Shown one piece after another: positions 52,973-63,937 of a stretch of 64,000 bases of DNA. Source of the stretch: Lichtheimia corymbifera B2541 (Eukaryota > Mucoromycota > Mucoromycetes > Mucorales > Lichtheimiaceae). Position 1 is the first letter of the stretch. Every line of letters begins with the position of its first letter. A program made the translations under genes and the position numbers. The notes below the pieces were generated by a model. It saw only the letters and a list, made by a program, of their open reading frames with translations. It did no database searches and had not been told where the DNA came from. The stretch covers positions 60,594 through 124,593 of the forward strand of contig JNEU01000811.1 of NCBI GenBank assembly GCA_000697475.1, in the 5' to 3' direction.

Positions 52973-54182
52973 TTATAGCCAAGGTCGCCAGCTTTGTCGA
53001 CGGGTATTGTCCTCTTCGACCACGACACGCCGCCTTTTAGCTGCTTGTTGCTGTTGTTCTTCATATTCTTGGTCACAGCGTTGCACATAATCAGCAGCCA
53101 TGGCAAGAATTTCAAGCGGTGCCATGTCGGGTGACAAAGTTGGATATGGGGATGTAGGCGTAGAGACATTGGATGAGGACGAAGAGGATGTGCTGGAGTA
53201 GGAATCATAAGGATCGGCAGTAGAGGATGATACTGGAGGAGGAGGATGTTGATGATAACCATTGTTTGATGGCTGTAATGGTGGAGGAGGTGCAAGTTCA
53301 TCCGCAGTGGGTGGCCAACGACGTTGTGTATCATAATAAAAGTAATAACGATCACCATTGTTACCAGGATTGGTGGTTGTTTGGTGATGTTGCTGTATCA
53401 TCATTTCTTCATGCCATCGTTGTTGCTGTTGTTGTTGCTTTTGAATCAAGAGCTGTTGGTTACGTTGTTGTTCTTGTTGTCGAACACGATTATATTTTGC
53501 ACGACGATTTTGGAACCACACCTAAAGGGGGGAGAGGGAAAGGAGGGGTTAGATTAGAGTTGGGTTCCATGCAGGCAAAAAGCGGGTGGATCATATGATG
53601 CCCCATATGGCAAGCCGAAAAATTTTCAAACATTCATTTACCTGAACTTCTCGGTTTGTCATGTTGAGCTCGGCTGCCAACTTTTCTCGCAATTCATAAT
53701 TGGGTGTGTCGGTCTGCTCAAAGAGTTCAGACAATCGTTGGAATTGTTCTTGTGAGATCCGCTTTCGCTTGGGTTTACTGGGAGCTTTTGGATGATGCAA
53801 AAACAAAATATGAGCGCAATTAGAATTTAGTGCATTATGAAGCATTTAAACAACCCATCTACCCCCACTCGCAGCATCTTTGGGGGGACCAAAGGAGGCA
53901 AGAGAAAAAGATATATTTACCTTCATGAGACTTGATACGTAAGTTTTGACGCTTATTCGATTGGTCATCATCCTTCGAATCTTCAGCATTAAGCAAAGTA
54001 TCAATCTTGTTATTGGAGGATGCATTATCTTGAGATGTGGGTGATAGTGGTGACGATGATTTTTTTGTTGAGAGTGGGACTGCCTGATGATGTTGATGAT
54101 GATGATGATGTGGCATATCGGAAGAAGTGCTTATCACCGGGGGAGGAACAACAGCAGGAGCAGCAGCAGCAGTGGCCATCAT
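52973..54182 (-). CDS. Homeodomain transcription factor
   Basis: Exons 54182-53921, 53784-53642 and 53521-52973 on the minus strand, 317 residues from the ATGATG at 54182. The homeodomain spans exons 2 and 3: PKRKRISQEQFQRLSELFEQ, then LREKLAAELNMTNREVQ joined to VWFQNRRAKYNRVRQ. Helix 3 has the invariant W, F, N and R. There is no three-residue TALE insertion visible, so it is a typical 60-residue homeodomain. Flanks are low-complexity: Ala/Pro and poly-His before, long Gln runs and Pro/Ser after. A helix near the C-terminus (PLEILAMAADYVQRCDQEYE) and a basic stretch (AAKRRRVVVEE) follow. It is divergent from the histidine kinase gene and shares its 0.6 kb upstream region. Target genes unknown. 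Confidence 0.88.
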
Positions 54183-54798: not shown

Positions 54799-54802
54799 AT
54801 GA
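54791..54802 (+). promoter_or_regulatory. Minimal uORF overlapping the kinase start
   Basis: ATG GTG GCA TGA: a three-codon upstream ORF whose stop overlaps the main start codon (ATGA) at 54799. It would matter only if the transcript starts upstream of 54791. Confidence 0.45.
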
Positions 54803-57800
54803 AGCGTTCTTCTTTCACTCGCGACAACAATAACGATTCCAACAAGAAACTTTGTACTCGATCGCCTTGCCCTTCCACTTTGCACAGCAACGACAATACC
54901 ACTATGAGTGTACAAGTATTATCTATTATTCAAGATACCATCCATCATTTGGACAAAGGTCGCATCGATCAATGTCTCAGTAATAGACTTTCTGCCGAAG
55001 CCTTGGATGAACTGGATTCCAAAAGTGCAGAGATAGCAACGTCCCTGGAGGCTGCCCTGAAGAATATCGCACAACGACAGTTACAACTAGAGACTGAAAA
55101 TCTGCGTTATCGGATAGCAATTCAACAACAACATCAGCTGTTGCTAGGCCAACAACAATTGCAACATGCTGGCAATATGCCGATACCATCGACATCCTCG
55201 TCATCAGCACCCTCATCTTCATCAGCAACAGTCAGGAACATCAATCCATCCTCATCTTCAGCCACATCCTCATCCAGAGAAGAAGAAGACGATGTCCCAT
55301 TGCCAACTTCATCTTCGACACAAGGTGCTGCTGCCAGTAGTCGTACTTTGGAACGACATCGCCCTGATGACCTACACATGACTTCTGAAGAAGGAATTCC
55401 CACTATCCGCGAGACTTCATTGATCGAACGAATGCAAACCCCCGCTGAGCCCATTGTATCCTTGCCAACCAATCATCGCATTAGTAAGTGTTGTGTGTGT
55501 GCGCTTTATGATTAAGAAAGAAAGGATCACTTATATATATACATTATATAGCTACCGACAGACGTCAGATCCCTGCTCCTATGCCCACACCACCTTTTAC
55601 TGTTCCACCTGGTTCTACTGCTTTCCCCGTATTCTTTGGCAACGACAGCACCACTGCTGCTGCTGCTGCTGCTACTTCATTGATGCCTGCTTCTTCTTCT
55701 AACGACACTACCGCCGATAATGCCGCCGATAACATTGTATGTTCAAATTGCGTTATGCAAGCCGTCAAGGTCGCCTCTGCTATTTATGCTGGTGAATTGC
55801 ACCAACGTGTGACATGTAACCATGAAGGATGCATTTCATCATCATCATCATCATCTGGTGCTGCACTCTCTCCAAACGCTCCTATCAACACACTAAAGAA
55901 TGCTGTCAATGCCATGGCCAACCATTTACAAAGAGTGACGGATGAAGTTATGTATGTGGCTCATGAAACGGCTGTCAAGGGCAAACTCGGTGTCCAAGCA
56001 CGTTGCGATTCACAAATGCGTGGTGTATGGCGTGAAGTGGTTGTTGATATGAACAATATGACTCGGAACCATCTTGAACAAGTCCGTGATATTGCCGATG
56101 TTTCTACTGCTATTGCACGTGGTGATCTCAGCAAGACCATGACGGCTCCCGTTAAGGGTGAGACTCTTGTCCTCAAGAATACATTCAATACGATGGGTAT
56201 GTTGTAACAAAAAAGGCGTGGATGGTGACACACTAATAATAATCATCCCATTGTAATAGTGAATCAGCTGAACACTTTTGCATCCGAAGTATCACGCGTG
56301 GCCCATGAAGTTGGCACAGAGGGCAAACTGGGTGTCCAAGCTAAAGTCGCTGGTGCAGATGGCATTTGGAAAGAGCTTACTGATAACGTCAATACCATGG
56401 CCGACAATCTTACCAACCAAGTTCGTGACATTGCTCAAGTCTCCAAATCTGTGGCTCGAGGTGATCTTACCAAAAAGGTGACTGTGGAAGTTCGCGGTGA
56501 AATGCTTGACCTCAAAAATACAATCAATACGATGGTGGATCAGGTAACTTGTTTGTTCGTGTTTCGGATGGGAGTGACGTGTGGGTGTGTATGTGGGCGT
56601 TTATATATGCACATCATATGATTTGTTTGATCTGACATTAAGTTTTTGTTTATTTGTTGGGGTACACAAATATAGCTTTCGACATTTGCACTTGAAGTGA
56701 CCCGTGTATCGCTCGAAGTTGGTACCAAGGGTATTCTCGGTGGCCAAGCTGTTGTCAAGGATGTGGATGGTACCTGGAAAGACCTTACCGACAATGTCAA
56801 TTTGATGGCATGCAAGATTACCGACCAAGTCAGAGATATTGCTGTTGTGGCAAAAGCAGTAGCCAAGGGAGATCTCAGTAAAAAGGTGGTTGCCAATGCA
56901 CAAGGCGAAGTTCTAGAACTCAAAAACACAATGAATCGCATGGTAAGTTGTCGTATGTACACATGCATTCCCACACATGAGCTAATTAAAGATAATCACG
57001 CTAGGTTGATCAATTGACATTATTCTCTGCCGAAGTACGTCGTGTATCACTTGAAGTCGGTGTTGAAGGCAAACTTGGCGGTCAGGCTGTAGTCAAAGAT
57101 GTGGGAGGTGCTTGGAAGGATCTTACCGATAATGTGAATACTATGGCTGCGAATCTCACCACCCAAGTACGATCGATTGCTGAAGTCACCAAAGCAGTAG
57201 CCAAAGGCGATTTATCCAAAAAGATTGACGTGGAGACGCGAGGCGAGATTTTGGATTTGAAAAACACGGTCAACAACATGGTGGATCAGCTCAGGGTGTT
57301 TTCGACTGAGGTGACACGTGTTGCCAAAGAAGTCGGTACAGAAGGCAAGCTTGGTGGTCAAGCATTTGTGCCCAATGTCGATGGCACGTGGAAAGACCTG
57401 ACAGATAATGTGAATACCATGGCTACCAATCTCACTACCCAAGTACGATCTATTGCCGTCGTCACAAAAGCCGTTGCCAATGGTGATCTCAGCAAAAAGA
57501 TTCATGTGAACGTGAGCGGTGAAATATCGGATCTCAAGGACACAGTCAACAATATGGTGGATCAATTACGTGTATTTGCATCCGAAGTAACACGTGTGGC
57601 AAGAGAAGTTGGTACAGAAGGCAAACTTGGTGGTGAAGCCAATGTCCCTAGTGTCAGTGGCACGTGGAAAGATCTTACCGACAATGTCAATACCATGGCA
57701 GCAAATTTGACAACCCAAGTGCGATCAATTGCTCAAGTAACAAAAGCTGTGGCCAAGGGTGATCTTAGCAAAAAGATTGACGTTGAGACACAAGGCGAGA

Positions 57801-60800
57801 TCTTGGATTTGAAAAACACGGTCAATAACATGGTGGATCAGCTCAATATATTTGCAGCCGAAGTGACTCGTGTGGCCAAAGAGGTGGGCACAGACGGCAA
57901 ACTTGGTGGTCAGGCGTCTGTGCCGAATGTGGATGGCACGTGGATGGATCTCACGGACAATGTCAACCAAATGGCTGCCAATCTCACAGCTCAAGTACGC
58001 TCTATTGCTGAAGTCACCAAATCAGTCGCTCATGGTGATCTTTCCAAAAAGATTGAAGTTGAGAGTGGTGGTGAAATCCTCGAGCTCAAGAATATCGTCA
58101 ACAACATGGTGGATCAGCTGCGTGTCTTTGCATCTGAAGTCACTCGTGTAGCTCGTGAAGTCGGCACGGATGGCAATCTTGGGGGACAAGCTGTGGTACA
58201 AGGTGTTGCTGGTACCTGGAAAGATTTAACCGACAATGTGAATATCATGGCTGCCAATTTGACAAGTCAAGTACGATCGATAGCTGAGGTGACCAAAGCT
58301 GTGGCGTTGGGCGATTTATCCAAAAAGATCGAAGTTGAAAGTGGCGGTGAAATTCTCGAGCTCAAGAATATTGTCAACAACATGGTGGATCAACTGCGTA
58401 TATTTGCTTCTGAAGTCACTCGTGTTTCCAAAGAAGTCGGCACTGAAGGCAAATTGGGAGGACAAGCTCTTGTGCGAGGCGTGGCGGGTACTTGGCATGA
58501 ATTGACGGATAATGTCAATACCATGGCTGCCAATCTCACTACTCAAGTACGGTCGATTGCTCAAGTGACCAAGGCTGTGGCCAATGGTGATCTATCAAAG
58601 AAAATCGAGGTCGAGACACGTGGTGAAATTCTTGATTTGAAGAATACAGTCAACAACATGGTGGATCAATTGAACGTATTTGCTGCTGAAGTAACACGTG
58701 TGGCAAAGGAAGTGGGCACGGATGGCAAATTGGGTGGTCAGGCTTCTGTGCCAAACGTGGATGGCACGTGGATGGATCTTACCGATAACGTCAATCAAAT
58801 GGCAGCCAACTTGACAGATCAAGTTCGATCAATTGCTGAAGTCACCAAAGCAGTTGCATTGGGAGATCTTTCCAAAAAGATTGAAGTTGAGAGTGGTGGT
58901 GAAATCCTTGAGCTCAAGAATATTGTCAACAACATGGTGGATCAACTACGTGTCTTTTCAACGGAGGTCACTCGTGTGTCGCGTGAAGTGGGTACCGAAG
59001 GCAAGCTCGGTGGTCAAGCCGTCGTTAATGGGGTAGCTGGTACATGGATGGATCTTACGGATAATGTCAACACGATGGCTGCCAATCTTACTACCCAAGT
59101 GCGGTCCATTGCTCAAGTCACCAAAGCTGTTGCCAATGGTGATTTATCCAAGAAAATTGACGTGGAAACTCGTGGTGAAATCCTTGACCTCAAGAATACA
59201 GTCAATGACATGGTGGATCAGCTTAGAGTGTTCTCAACAGAAGTGACACGTGTTGCAAAAGAGGTTGGCACAGAAGGCAAGCTTGGTGGTCAAGCATTTG
59301 TACCCAATGTGGATGGCACGTGGAAAGATCTCACAGACAACGTGAATACAATGGCAACCAACCTCACCACGCAGGTGCGATCCATTGCTCAAGTGACGAA
59401 AGCAGTCGCTCTCGGTGATCTATCCAAGAAGATCGAAATTGAAACGCGTGGCGAGATTCTCGAGCTCAAAGATATTGTCAATGAAATGGTGGATCAACTG
59501 CGTATATTTGCATCAGAGGTCACTCGTGTATCAAAAGAAGTCGGCACTGAAGGCAAATTGGGTGGACAAGCTGTTGTACAAGGCGTTGCTGGTACCTGGA
59601 AAAACTTGACCGACAATGTCAATATCATGGCTGCCAATTTGACGAGTCAAGTGCGATCTATTGCTGAAGTTACCAAAGCTGTGGCGTTGGGCGATTTATC
59701 CAAAAAGATTGAGGTTGAGAGCGGTGGCGAGATTCTTGAGCTCAAAGATATTGTCAATGAAATGGTGGATCAGCTGCGTATATTTGCATCAGAGGTCACT
59801 CGTGTATCAAAAGAAGTCGGCACTGAAGGCAAATTGGGTGGACAAGCTGTTGTACAAGGCGTTGCTGGTACCTGGAAAAACTTGACCGACAATGTCAATA
59901 TCATGGCTGCCAATTTGACGAGTCAAGTGCGATCTATTGCTGAAGTTACCAAAGCTGTGGCGTTGGGCGATTTATCCAAAAAGATTGAGGTTGAGAGCGG
60001 TGGCGAGATTCTTGAGCTCAAAGATATTGTCAATGAAATGGTGGATCAGCTGCGTATATTTGCATCAGAGGTCACTCGTGTATCAAAAGAAGTCGGCACT
60101 GAAGGCAAATTGGGTGGACAAGCTGTTGTACAAGGTGTTGCTGGTACCTGGAAAAACCTGACGGACAATGTGAATATCATGGCTGCCAATTTAACGAGTC
60201 AAGTGCGATCCATTGCCGAGGTGACCAAAGCTGTGGCATTGGGTGACTTATCCAAGAAGATTGAGGTTGAGAGTGGTGGAGAGATCCTCGAACTCAAGAA
60301 TATTGTCAACAACATGGTGGATCAGCTGCGTGTCTTTTCTACTGAGGTTACAAGAGTGGCACGTGAAGTGGGCACAGAAGGCAAATTGGGAGGTCAAGCT
60401 CTGGTTCAAGGTGTTGCTGGTACCTGGAAAGATTTGACTGATAATGTCAACATGATGGCTGGTAATCTCACTACCCAAGTGCGTTCCATTGCTACTGTTA
60501 CCACGGCTGTTGCGAAGGGTGATTTATCACGCAAGATTGTGGTTGAAGTACAAGGCGAAATTCTTGAGCTAAAGTAAGTATGAGTCTATTCCCCAGATGA
60601 TATAACATGTTACTCATCTATATATTTTAGGGATACGGTGAATTCCATGGTGGATCAGCTACGTGTATTTGCTGCCGAAGTAACACGCGTGGCGCGAGAA
60701 GTGGGTACCGAAGGCAAATTGGGTGGCCAAGCAGCTATTCGTGGTGTCGATGGAACCTGGAAAGACTTGACAGACAATGTCAATTCGATGGCAAGCAATC

Positions 60801-62919
60801 TCACAGACCAATTACGTGCTATTGCTGCAGTATGTAAAGCTGTAGCACAAGGTGATTTATCCAAAAAGATCGAGGTCGAGGTGCATGGTGAAATTGCCGA
60901 GCTCAAGAATACCATCAATACCATGGTTGACCAACTCAACTCGTTTGCATCTGAAGTGACAAGGGTTGCTCGTGAAGTGGGTACTGAGGGCAAATTGGGT
61001 GTACAAGCCGAAGTCGAGGATGTGGAAGGTGTTTGGCGTGAGATCACCAGCAATGTCAATACCATGGCGTCGAACCTTACAACCCAAGTACGTGCATTTG
61101 CACAAATTTCAGCTTCTGCCACGGCGAACGACTTTTCACGTATGATCACAGTCGAAGCTTCTGGTGAAATGGATTCGTTAAAGACCAAGATCAACCAAAT
61201 GGTGGCCTCGTTGCGTGATGCTATTGATAAGAACCGACTAGCCAAAGAAGCTGCTGAATTGGCCAATCGATCCAAGAGCGAGTTCCTTGCCAACATGAGT
61301 CACGAGATTCGAACACCCATGAACGGCATTATTGGCATGACATCGTTGACGTTGGAAACCGAGCTTACACGTCAGCAGCGTGAAAACTTGATGATTGTAT
61401 CCAGCCTGGCCAATAGCCTGTTGACGATCATTGATGATATTCTCGATATTTCCAAGATCGAAGCGGGTCGCATGACAATTGAGAAGATTCCATTTTCGTT
61501 ACGATCCAACATGTTCAGTGTACTCAAGACCTTGGCTGTGAAGGCGAATCAAAAGAAACTCGACTTGATCTACAATGTGGATAACTCGATTCCTGATCAA
61601 TTGGTGGGTGATCCTTTCCGTTTACGACAAGTGATTACCAATTTGATCGGCAATGCTGTCAAATTTACCAACCATGGAGAAGTTGTACTACGATCACGTT
61701 CGGTTGGCATGAATGGCGATGATGTCATGGTCGAATTTTGTGTAAGCGATACTGGCATTGGTATTCCTTCAGACAAGCTGGATGCTATCTTTGACACATT
61801 TGCACAAGCTGATGGTGGCATCACGTAAGTGCCTTTATATATGACCAAATTGATATATATCTTTATTAACATTTTCATTCTACTAGACGACAATATGGTG
61901 GCACTGGTCTTGGTTTATCTATTTCCAAGCACTTTGTACAGCTCATGGGTGGCAAGTTATGGGTTGAAAGCATGTATGGTCGTGGATCCGAGTTTTACTT
62001 TACGGTGAATTTGCAACGATATCATGTCAAGACGGATGAGATTCAAGAGAAGCTTGCTCGTTTCCGAGGACGTCGTGTGTTATATCTCGAGTCACCTGGC
62101 AACGAATCGACCTTGGTTTCTCAAATAGCCGAGCTTGGACTGCAGCCTGTAAAAGTAAGCAGCATGGAAGAAACGACAGAGACAGCCAACAACCGAAGTG
62201 CAGCAGCGAGCAAAAAGAACACACATGTGCCACCTTTTGATGTGCTTGTAGTGGACAACATGACACACGCTGAACGTATTCGAGAGATTGTACACTTGCG
62301 TTTCACGCCTATTGTATTGATCACCCCAGAGATCCATCCGCTCAATATGAAACTATGTATCGATTTGGGCATTACTAGCTGTGTCAACACACCCATCACC
62401 AACCCTGACTTGGCACATGCCTTATTACCCGCTCTCGAAAACCATGTGGCCGTTCCAAGCGATGCATCCAAATCAGCAGCACTTGAAATCTTACTTGCTG
62501 AAGACAACCCAGTCAACCAAAAGCTTGCCGTACGCATTCTCGAAAAGTTTGGACACCATGTGCACATTGTTGCAAACGGTCAATTGGCTGTCGAGGCATT
62601 CCAGAACAAGAGGCTTGATCTCATTCTCATGGACGTCCAAATGCCTGTTATGGGCGGCTTTGAAGCAACTCAACAAATTCGACGTCTTGAAAAATCATCC
62701 GGCACCAATGCCCATATACCCATCATTGCACTTACTGCACACGCCATGATCGGCGACCGTGAAAAATGCTTGAATGCAGGCATGGTATGTATCTCTTTTA
62801 TTTTTCTCTATGGATCGATGAATGATTGCTCATTGTATATTATTTAGGATGAATACGTAACCAAACCGCTCCGTTTCCCTGAACTCATTGCTGCTATCAA
62901 AAAGTTTGCCCCACAATGA
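54799..62919 (+). CDS. Group III (Nik1/Os-1 type) hybrid histidine kinase with ~18 HAMP units
   Basis: Eight exons: 54799-55483, 55552-56196, 56260-56543, 56676-56942, 57005-60573, 60631-61824, 61887-62784 and 62848-62919, giving about 2,537 residues in phase. Order: low-complexity N-terminus with a coiled coil (~residues 60-115), then ~18 units of ~92 residues, each a HAMP domain plus linker (core DLTDNVN...[27 protein letters not shown]). Then HisKA ([20 protein letters not shown]~2041), an HATPase with N, G1 and G2 boxes ([29 protein letters not shown]) and a receiver ([18 protein letters not shown] with D~2464, VTKPL). No transmembrane segment. Family members sense osmotic stress upstream of the HOG pathway and are the targets of fludioxonil and iprodione. 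All catalytic motifs look intact. Confidence 0.93.
57005..60573 (+). repeat. Thirteen in-frame 276-bp HAMP-coding units in one exon
   Basis: The LTDNVN codons start at 57122 and recur at 57398, 57674, 57950, 58226, 58502, 58778, 59054, 59330, 59606, 59882, 60158 and 60434, exactly 276 bp apart with no indel. Further units lie in exons 2, 3 and 4 (one each) and in exon 6 (two). The array accounts for about half the protein. Confidence 0.95.
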
Positions 62920-63482: not shown

Positions 63483-63554
63483 TCCTCTATGGTCCAGTGG
63501 TCAGGATCCCTGTCTTTCACACAGGTGGCCCGGGTTCGATTCCCGGTGGGGGAA
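63483..63554 (+). tRNA. tRNA-Glu (anticodon UUC)
   Basis: A full cloverleaf folds by eye. The acceptor TCCTCTA pairs with TGGGGGA (G-U pairs allowed). The D-arm contains TGGTCCAGTGG (A box). The anticodon stem CCTGT/ACAGG has loop CTTTCAC, giving TTC at 34-36. The T-arm CCGGGTTCGATTCCCGG contains the B box GGTTCGATTCC. No intron. It reads GAA (and GAG by wobble) glutamate codons. Confidence 0.95.
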
Positions 63555-63596: not shown

Positions 63597-63937
63597 TGTC
63601 GTCTTTCTTTTTGGATCCACACAGGAGAATAATAGACGACGTCCACGAAGGAATAAGACCACACAGGAATAGAATAGACCACGAAGGATAAGACCACACA
63701 GGAATATAGACCACGAAGGATAGAAGTGCCACACAGGCAAATAGACAATAAAATAGAGAGAACGTAAGATAATGTTTTATTCTATGATCAGGTCCACTAT
63801 TTATAATTGTATGATGGGGCTAAGTAATATATATTGAGTGTGGCGAAGTAATGATGGAGGGCGCAGCATAAAGATGCCAAGATGATTGTATGCAAAAGAT
63901 AATACCGATCAAGAAGATCAGGTATGTTGCTGCGACA
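63597..63937 (-). mobile_element. LTR (341 bp) of a minus-strand LTR retrotransposon
   Basis: The segment starts TGTCG and ends CGACA, so the ends are inverted TG...CA termini. Inside are imperfect tandem units (gaccaca.caggaata / gaccacgaaggata, 63,655-63,725) and AATAAAA-type signals. Directly outside the right end, the minus strand reads a polypurine tract (GGGAGGGGGG). This marks 63,597-63,937 as the 3' LTR of an element that runs off the right edge. It sits 42 bp beyond the tRNA-Glu gene. Confidence 0.75.

What the first reader, a model, noticed from the sequence alone, without database searches (positions are those of the whole stretch)
54799..62919. Hybrid histidine kinase with an 18-unit HAMP array
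I count 18 HAMP/linker units (one in each of exons 2-4, thirteen in exon 5, two in exon 6) ahead of intact HisKA, HATPase and receiver domains. Known Nik1/Os-1 proteins have, from memory, about five to six. Because alternating HAMP units pass a two-state signal, tripling the array could change gain, set-point or the length of the sensor rod, and also the response to fungicides that act through this region. I know of no described protein of this size in the class, but cannot search.
Basis: partly seen in the sequence, partly recalled or inferred. Interest (0 to 1): 0.92.

Follow-up and report, generated by a model that had tools for sequence, protein, structure and literature searches.

The report
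Fungal stress kinase with very long array
This is a real fungal stress-sensing kinase built on a very long repeated rod; the great length turns out to be normal for its fungal lineage, but the rod's fixed ends, its changeable middle and a cysteine cluster at its tip look undescribed and can be tested.

Summary
Window 54799-62919 (+) is an eight-exon gene for a 2,537-residue group III (Nik1/Os-1 type) hybrid histidine kinase from a Lichtheimia fungus. It has 18 units of 92 residues ahead of HisKA, HATPase and receiver domains. Each unit is a pair of HAMPs, and one more HAMP with a CxxC...C motif precedes them, so the total is about 37. The claim of a unique size fails. The same genome holds four more such genes (20, 20, 14 and about 10 units). 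Of 83 rows taken as Mucorales in a kinase-only search, 55 have 15 or more units (median 18). Mortierella, Basidiobolus, Calocera and Mycena have comparable or longer arrays. New points: (1) units change almost only as whole di-HAMPs; (2) the first about 4 and last 2-3 units keep their place across Mucorales while the middle turns over; (3) length differs between near-identical genes (18 vs 17; 20 vs about 12 in a paralogue), by polymorphism or assembly/model error; (4) cysteines sit at the N-terminal tip. Best reading: a dimeric signalling rod with specialised ends and a length-tolerant middle. One of the 18 units (13 or 14, identical in DNA) could be an assembly artefact.

The parts
54799..62919 (+). 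Whole gene, group III hybrid histidine kinase; exons 54799-55483, 55552-56196, 56260-56543, 56676-56942, 57005-60573, 60631-61824, 61887-62784, 62848-62919
   Evidence: Seven GT-AG introns, open frame of 2,537 aa; Pfam domains
54799..55739 (+). N-terminal low-complexity region (residues 1-291, interrupted by intron 1), beginning MKRS with a KK pair shortly after, as in the three modelled paralogues
   Evidence: calling this nuclear-import-like is recalled and untested
55740..55940 (+). HAMP0: canonical-type HAMP with an inserted loop and Cys residues at 292, 295, 317 and 322 (CxxC-x21-C-x4-C)
   Evidence: Profile match to the canonical HAMP half P=8.3e-11, five shuffled controls 0.064 or worse; looser motif in 102 of 161 fungal proteins
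55944..57031 (+). Units 1-3 of the array, interrupted by introns 2-4: N-terminal fixed units
   Evidence: Unit register; same-position best match 0.80, 0.83, 0.82 in 34 proteins
57032..60343 (+). Units 4-15 in the intron-free exon 5; unit 4 positionally conserved (0.73), later units increasingly variable
   Evidence: TRF period 276
59516..60067 (+). Units 13 and 14, identical in DNA: most recent duplication or assembly artefact
   Evidence: 100% identity, dS 0; one copy fewer in L. ornata P0042
60344..61228 (+). Units 16-18 (intron 5 lies inside unit 16): C-terminal units, the last two strongly fixed, leading into the kinase
   Evidence: Same-position best match 0.60, 0.94, 0.94 in 34 proteins
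61271..61468 (+). HisKA with phospho-acceptor His (SHEIRTP, His at residue 2041)
   Evidence: Pfam PF00512 residues 2031-2096; motif
61607..62016 (+). HATPase_c, interrupted by intron 6
   Evidence: Pfam PF02518 residues 2143-2258; motifs
62488..62901 (+). C-terminal receiver domain, interrupted by intron 7 (phospho-Asp 2464, Lys in TKPL)
   Evidence: Pfam PF00072 residues 2416-2532; motifs

Best explanation
A cytosolic or nuclear group III hybrid histidine kinase. It very probably forms a parallel dimer whose N-terminal part is a rod of about 37 HAMPs: HAMP0, then 18 divergent/canonical pairs. Input is received at the N-terminal end (HAMP0 with its cysteines, units 1-4), passed as a two-state HAMP conformational change through a homogenised, length-tolerant middle, and converted by adaptor units 16-18 into a kinase or phosphatase state of the HisKA/HATPase core, which phosphorylates or dephosphorylates the receiver and then a Ypd1-type carrier of the HOG pathway. 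Units are gained and lost almost only as whole di-HAMPs, so helix phase and the sign of the signal need not depend on rod length. Shown here: gene structure, unit count, di-HAMP nature, fixed ends with a variable middle, purifying selection, intact catalytic motifs. Inferred from group III kinases and Aer2: dimer, two-state relay, HOG output. Inferred without direct test: input at HAMP0 and independence of polarity from length.
For: Domains and catalytic motifs. Both halves of the unit are HAMPs: profile match P=1.4e-4 (hhalign probability 52%) against 0.056 or worse in five shuffles; match to solved poly-HAMP chains 9trk (E 9e-94) and 9trj and to Aer2 3vol (E 1.2e-4); two connectors per 92 aa in a low-confidence model. 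CaNik1p is described as four 92-aa HAMP pairs plus one single HAMP (PMC3848655, passages). Whole-unit steps: 2,327 of 2,434 fungal unit spacings are 90-94 aa, none is 44-48, one is 136-140. Fixed ends and variable middle. Selection. HAMP regions affect kinase activity and fungicide response in Bos1 and Drk1 (PMC3418262, PMC6433957; passages).
Against: No expression, interaction or activity data. The AlphaFold model of seven HAMPs is poor (mean pLDDT 53.7) and was used only for secondary structure. 107 of 2,434 fungal spacings lie outside 90-94 aa; I take most as broken gene models but did not test them. Nothing shows that a signal crosses so many HAMPs; conservation of the ends alone would also fit a passive spacer. 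Positional conservation fails outside the group examined: in Mortierella alpina only the last unit finds its counterpart. HAMP0's Cys motif is in 0 of 28 Dikarya, 0 of 2 Entomophthorales and 2 of 7 Basidiobolus proteins tested, so it cannot be a universal input.
Confidence: 0.6

Rival explanations
1. The interior units are a passive spacer: length drifts nearly neutrally by unequal recombination, and only the end units and kinase signal.
For: Interior units are interchangeable between paralogues and species (core identity within C199 0.84, to the other five proteins compared 0.84-0.86) and position is not conserved (0.15 and 0.09 at the eighth unit from the N- and C-terminus). Array length differs between near-identical kinases in public models.
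Against: Purifying selection on the exon-5 units as a set (not tested unit by unit) and the closely kept 92-aa phase are more than a spacer needs. Published HAMP mutations in short group III kinases change activity (PMC3418262, passages).
Confidence: 0.25
2. The true count is 17: the extra copy of unit 13/14 is an assembly duplication.
For: Units 13 and 14 are identical in DNA over an exact 362-bp run. L. ornata (P0042) has 17; L. corymbifera (P0046) also appears to have 17, although its gene model has gaps there.
Against: Tandem copy-number change is expected in such an array, and another Lichtheimia orthologue pair differs by more (20 against about 12). An exact 362-bp run is not beyond ordinary reads (inference; the sequencing method is unknown).
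Confidence: 0.35
3. The long array also binds DNA or acts as a nuclear scaffold, as reported for Myxococcus AskB.
For: Summed Pfam matches to HTH_6 and SpoIIID in the array resemble the partial matches reported for AskA and AskB, and AskB binds DNA in vitro (PMC7643160, passages). A. fumigatus TcsC is nuclear (PMC11253588, passages).
Against: No single stretch passes on its own. The matches overlap HAMP helices and probably arise by summing weak repeats. TcsC's first 208 residues, without HAMPs, suffice for nuclear targeting.
Confidence: 0.07

Closest known systems
Fungal group III hybrid histidine kinases (Nik1/Os-1, Bos1, TcsC, Drk1, DhNik1, CaNik1p)
   Same: Tandem HAMPs in 92-aa pairs (as described for CaNik1p), HisKA, HATPase_c and C-terminal receiver; no evident membrane helix
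   Different: 18 pairs plus one, against four pairs plus one (nine HAMPs) in CaNik1p and five to six repeats given for class III in PMC3418262; cysteine-bearing HAMP0; array length varies between close relatives
Long-array group III proteins of Mucorales, Mortierella, Basidiobolus, Kickxellomycotina, Dacrymycetes and Mycena, deposited mostly as 'hypothetical protein'
   Same: Same architecture with about 11-38 full units; the L. ornata orthologue is almost identical
   Different: Unit number; long arrays appear on several branches beside short ones, suggesting repeated expansion
Bacterial GAF/poly-HAMP hybrid kinases (Bryobacteraceae and others) and PDB 9trk/9trj
   Same: Same 92-aa unit, 14-18 units per protein; the solved chain matches our profile at E 9e-94 and the 12 best rows, all bacterial-type, at about 74-77% identity
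   Different: Bacterial proteins carry GAF domains (Pfam column); none found here
Myxococcus/Sorangium AskA, AskB, Amb07
   Same: Described as having an extended poly-HAMP region compared with NIK1, with similar partial HTH Pfam matches (PMC7643160, passages)
   Different: Bacterial, part of ambruticin sensing; DNA binding reported for AskB, untested here
Pseudomonas Aer2 poly-HAMP (3LNR/3VOL)
   Same: Concatenated HAMP chain and two-state relay model (PMC3570549, passages; sequence match)
   Different: Only five HAMPs, a haem PAS domain and chemoreceptor output

Membership tests
Fungal group III hybrid histidine kinase | Tandem HAMP repeats in the N-terminal half | tested here: met
   18 units; Pfam HAMP 17 stretches
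Fungal group III hybrid histidine kinase | HisKA with phospho-acceptor His, HATPase_c with N/G boxes, C-terminal receiver with Asp and Lys | tested here: met
Fungal group III hybrid histidine kinase | Group III H-box signature | tested here: inconclusive
   [14 protein letters not shown] present, but the group signature itself is recalled and no characterised Nik1 or Os-1 sequence was fetched. P0011, named NIK1 by its depositor, is 67% identical over residues 1800-2537; other rows named NIK1-like or osmosensor are 60-72% identical to the paralogue L011's kinase
Fungal group III hybrid histidine kinase | No transmembrane segment | tested here: met
   Highest 19-aa hydropathy (1.65, borderline) lies at residue 2070, inside HisKA; no TM predictor was run
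Fungal group III hybrid histidine kinase | Output to Ypd1 and the HOG pathway; phenylpyrrole response | not testable with these tools
   Needs experiment
Poly-HAMP chain (alternating canonical and divergent HAMPs) | Both halves of the 92-aa unit are HAMPs | tested here: met
   hhalign P=1.4e-4, probability 52%, against shuffles 0.056 or worse; match to 9trk/9trj; two connectors per unit in a low-confidence model. Pfam does not detect the divergent half
Bacterial GAF/poly-HAMP kinase | GAF domain with the array | tested here: not met
   No GAF domain in the Pfam scan
DNA-binding poly-HAMP kinase (AskB-like) | Sequence-specific DNA binding | not testable with these tools
   Only summed weak Pfam matches

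The most novel reading that the evidence does not exclude
The exon-5 array is a coding minisatellite: whole di-HAMP units are gained and lost within species, so strains carry the same kinase on rods of different length (18 vs 17 and 20 vs about 12 units in Lichtheimia; 10-13 vs 18 in Rhizopus with kinases at least 99.4% identical), while specialised end units keep polarity. The cysteine cluster of HAMP0 at the rod's tip is the metal-, redox- or aldehyde-sensing input. This would be a sensor kinase with heritably tunable length.
Probability: 0.28. Interest if true: 0.72.

Novelty: new variant of a known kind. Interest (0 to 1): 0.5.

Why it matters
HAMP signalling is argued from short chains (one to five HAMPs in chemoreceptors, nine in CaNik1p). 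A natural series from about 5 to more than 30 di-HAMP units on one kinase type, with fixed ends and a changeable middle, makes the question of whether HAMP chains carry a signal over long distances directly testable. It also shows that the textbook group III kinase, drawn from Dikarya, is one end of a wide range, and it points to a specific candidate input, the HAMP0 cysteines, for a class whose sensor site is unsettled. Copy-number variation in the array, if real, would be a source of strain differences in stress signalling.

Tried and rejected
Uniqueness of the 18-unit array: rejected. Artefact of the whole array: rejected (DNA divergence of units, dN/dS about 0.09). Exon skipping of exon 5: rejected on phase. 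Pfam HAMP and HAMP_2 as the two halves of a unit: rejected, since both models hit the same canonical half. HTH_6, SpoIIID, spectrin, ATG17 and the like: treated as sums of weak repeat matches, with no single stretch passing. Fold search was not run because the model was poor; the second structure job was not used. Zinc binding by all four HAMP0 cysteines of one chain was judged unlikely, because CxxC and the next Cys lie at opposite ends of a helix of about 20 residues (inference). Eight paper searches (listings and starts of abstracts) showed no title or abstract describing long arrays in Mucorales or the cysteine motif; in nine of the listed papers I saw only passages found by search terms; subscription papers are mostly not held. 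PMC4965123 (passages) already notes that Mucoromycotina, for example L. corymbifera, have many HKs through gene duplication. The survey of early diverging fungi PMC5285503 (passages) notes group III kinases there; the word HAMP does not occur in its held main text.

Limits: ranks by summed repeat score and so favours long arrays, and the proteins of the tree were picked partly from it. Each protein search lists only 120 of about 8,000 scored. Unit counts rest on depositors' gene models, several partial or irregular (odd spacings listed). The 83 'Mucorales' rows are listing rows up to P0152 that have units, Umbelopsis P0072 left out; one later Rhizopus row (P0095) was not counted among them; 16 of the 120 rows had no units. 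The positional test used 34 of 61 fungal proteins with clean spacing: the four own models and 30 others that I had named, one of them Umbelopsis. In it some proteins depart from the rule (Blakeslea unit 1, Phycomyces unit 2). The tree has very long branches, some joins are flagged by the tool as possibly false, one row (P0218) was dropped for lack of a motif, and the root is for drawing only. The 102 of 161 motif count comes from a pattern written after seeing the motif; a stricter one with the last Cys gave 49 of 107, and three Cys columns are invariant by selection. The halves compared were cut from circularly rotated units, 400 of 1,800, fungal and bacterial together.
Full report
What is there. 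The gene at 54799-62919 (+) splices cleanly at seven GT-AG introns into one frame of 2,537 residues. Pfam finds HAMP (17 stretches), HisKA 2031-2096, HATPase_c 2143-2258 and a C-terminal receiver 2416-2532, and the catalytic motifs are intact. The array is 18 units long with an exact 92-residue period, the first unit being 93; at DNA level TRF sees period 276.

Each unit is two HAMPs. Pfam's HAMP and HAMP_2 models both mark only one half of the unit. The other half is a divergent HAMP: profiles of the two halves, built from 400 of 1,800 units of many proteins, align over 44 columns at P=1.4e-4 (hhalign probability 52%), while five column-shuffled controls gave 0.056 or worse. A profile of seven consecutive HAMPs matches the solved poly-HAMP constructs 9trk (E 9e-94) and 9trj (1.1e-42), deposited as 'histidine kinase,Gcn4p', and Aer2 3vol (1.2e-4); two annexins at E about 0.1 are taken as chance. 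AlphaFold gave a poor model (mean pLDDT 53.7) whose secondary structure nonetheless alternates helices of about 30 residues with connectors of 14 and 18-19 residues, two connectors per unit. The literature describes CaNik1p the same way, four 92-residue HAMP pairs and one single HAMP (PMC3848655, passages). A further HAMP with an inserted loop precedes unit 1 (P=8.3e-11 against canonical HAMPs, shuffles 0.064 or worse). The total is therefore about 37.

Is it unusual? Not in its lineage. The window lies on contig C199 of a 35-Mb assembly in which the 68 HAMP matches reported fall in five genes (a lower bound by its own note); the three close paralogues have 20, 20 and 14 units and a diverged one about 10. 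The closest public proteins are from Lichtheimia ornata and L. corymbifera (kinase parts 520 and 521 of 522 identical). In a kinase-only search free of array bias, 55 of 83 rows taken as Mucorales have 15 or more full units, median 18, range 6-26, and 34 have more than 18. Mortierella alpina reaches 30, Calocera 24-27, Basidiobolus 20, Mycena 15-20, and one irregular, partial Linderina model 37-38, while Rhodotorula, Lipomyces, Pleurotus and Wallemia rows have 4-6 full matches. In a kinase tree the long arrays sit on several branches beside short ones, for example Mycena (18, 20) next to Pleurotus (6) and Suillus (5), and Basidiobolus 20 next to 9; repeated expansion is the simplest reading, with the caution that several branches are very long and some joins are flagged. 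Bacterial relatives with GAF domains carry 14-18 units.

How the array changes. Of 2,434 unit spacings in 187 fungal proteins, 2,327 are 90-94 residues, none is 44-48 and one is 136-140; the other irregular ones, many of them between about 58 and 87, I take for broken gene models without having tested it. In 32 bacterial proteins 426 of 458 are 92 and the other 32 are 97-98. Single HAMPs are thus rarely if ever added. Across 34 proteins (33 of Mucorales, the four own paralogues included, and Umbelopsis ramanniana), the unit at a given position from the N-terminus is the best match of its counterpart in 0.80, 0.83, 0.82 and 0.73 of comparisons for positions 1-4, falling to 0.15 at position 8; from the C-terminus the values are 0.94, 0.94 and 0.60 for the last three, falling to 0.09 (1,122 ordered pairs each). 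The ends are fixed and the middle turns over, in this group; against Mortierella alpina only the last unit finds its counterpart, and a few Mucorales proteins depart at units 1 or 2. The fixed N-terminal units are interrupted by introns, whereas the variable middle lies in the single intron-free exon 5. The twelve complete exon-5 units have median dN 0.139 and dS 1.49 over 66 pairs, three of them saturated and left out, so the middle is mostly old and, as a set, under purifying selection. Units 13 and 14 alone are identical in DNA, and L. ornata has one copy fewer with the rest of the array matching at 91-92 of 92 residues per unit.

Length differences between near-identical genes. Besides 18 against 17 here, the L. 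corymbifera protein P0123, 99.8% identical to paralogue L010 in the kinase, passes directly from unit 7 to unit 16 of L010's 20 units, the 11 mapped units each matching 92 of 92. Eight Rhizopus proteins with kinases at least 99.4% identical to P0064 have 10-13 units against its 18. Against this reading: five of those eight (P0125, P0126, P0128, P0130, P0132) have a clearly irregular unit spacing, P0064 has one too, and P0046 has gaps in its model, so assembly or model breaks are present in just these data. For it: in L010 the longest exact repeat at any of 13 whole-unit shifts is 71 bp, which makes collapse by an assembler less obvious there. Reads are needed.

The tip. HAMP0 carries CxxC immediately before its first helix and a Cys (in 56 of 66 aligned sequences followed by xH) at its connector; a C-x2-C...R[IV]xC pattern occurs in 102 of 161 fungal proteins with at least five units. 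By group it is in 4 of 4 Umbelopsis, 7 of 7 Glomeromycotina, 11 of 15 Mortierellomycotina, 1 of 2 Dimargaritales, 2 of 7 Basidiobolus, 0 of 2 Entomophthorales and 0 of 28 Dikarya proteins tested. The array proper has 3 Cys in 1,653 residues. Cysteine sensing has precedent in this class: a C392S change in a HAMP of Drk1 raised fludioxonil resistance, and methylglyoxal was proposed as the signal; but the same change did not alter the response to allyl alcohol or methylglyoxal itself (PMC6433957, abstract and passages). Whether HAMP0 binds metal or reacts with thiol stressors is untested.

Mechanism. The best-supported account is a dimeric rod with specialised ends: input at HAMP0 and units 1-4, two-state relay through the middle, conversion by units 16-18 into a kinase or phosphatase state. 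The gene structure, di-HAMP units, fixed ends and selection are shown; dimer, relay and HOG output are inferred from Aer2 (PMC3570549, passages) and short group III kinases (PMC3418262, passages). A passive-spacer middle is the main rival.

Novelty. The family is known, and the long form is widespread in databases, mostly under names such as 'hypothetical protein'. Eight paper searches did not show a description of it in Mucorales; the nearest statement I saw is that myxobacterial AskA, AskB and Amb07 have an extended poly-HAMP region (PMC7643160, passages). I rate it a variant of a known kind, of moderate interest, with higher interest if strain-level length variation or the tip input is confirmed.

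Noticed in passing
53591-53845 (-): A frame on the opposite strand upstream of the kinase matches a homeodomain (Pfam PF00046, E 6.7e-10), so the kinase may share a divergent promoter region with a homeobox gene.
   Followed up: partly
63483-63554 (+): tRNA-Glu (TTC) gene, followed by a short tandem repeat at 63643-63746 (period 35); the contig ends at the window's right edge (C199 is 124,593 bases).
   Followed up: no
L012 (G000:C152:279500-289000, minus strand): A fifth, diverged poly-HAMP kinase with about 10 units broken up by several introns and a Cys-containing stretch ahead of the array; it was not put in the tree.
   Followed up: partly
P0046 and P0123 (L. corymbifera public proteins): P0046 shows two gene-model gaps inside the array relative to this gene, and P0123 lacks units 8-15 of L010; public unit counts for this family are unreliable without reads.
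   Followed up: partly
residues 1-20 of the window protein and the three modelled paralogues: All four begin MKRS and have a KK pair 10-12 residues after the KR; bipartite-import-signal-like (recalled), of interest because A. fumigatus TcsC is nuclear (PMC11253588).
   Followed up: no
Mycena, Pleurotus and Dacryopinax relatives (e.g. P0035, P0232, P0066): A CPxC motif (often CPACGH) stands just before the first unit in these basidiomycete proteins, perhaps a related tip motif.
   Followed up: no
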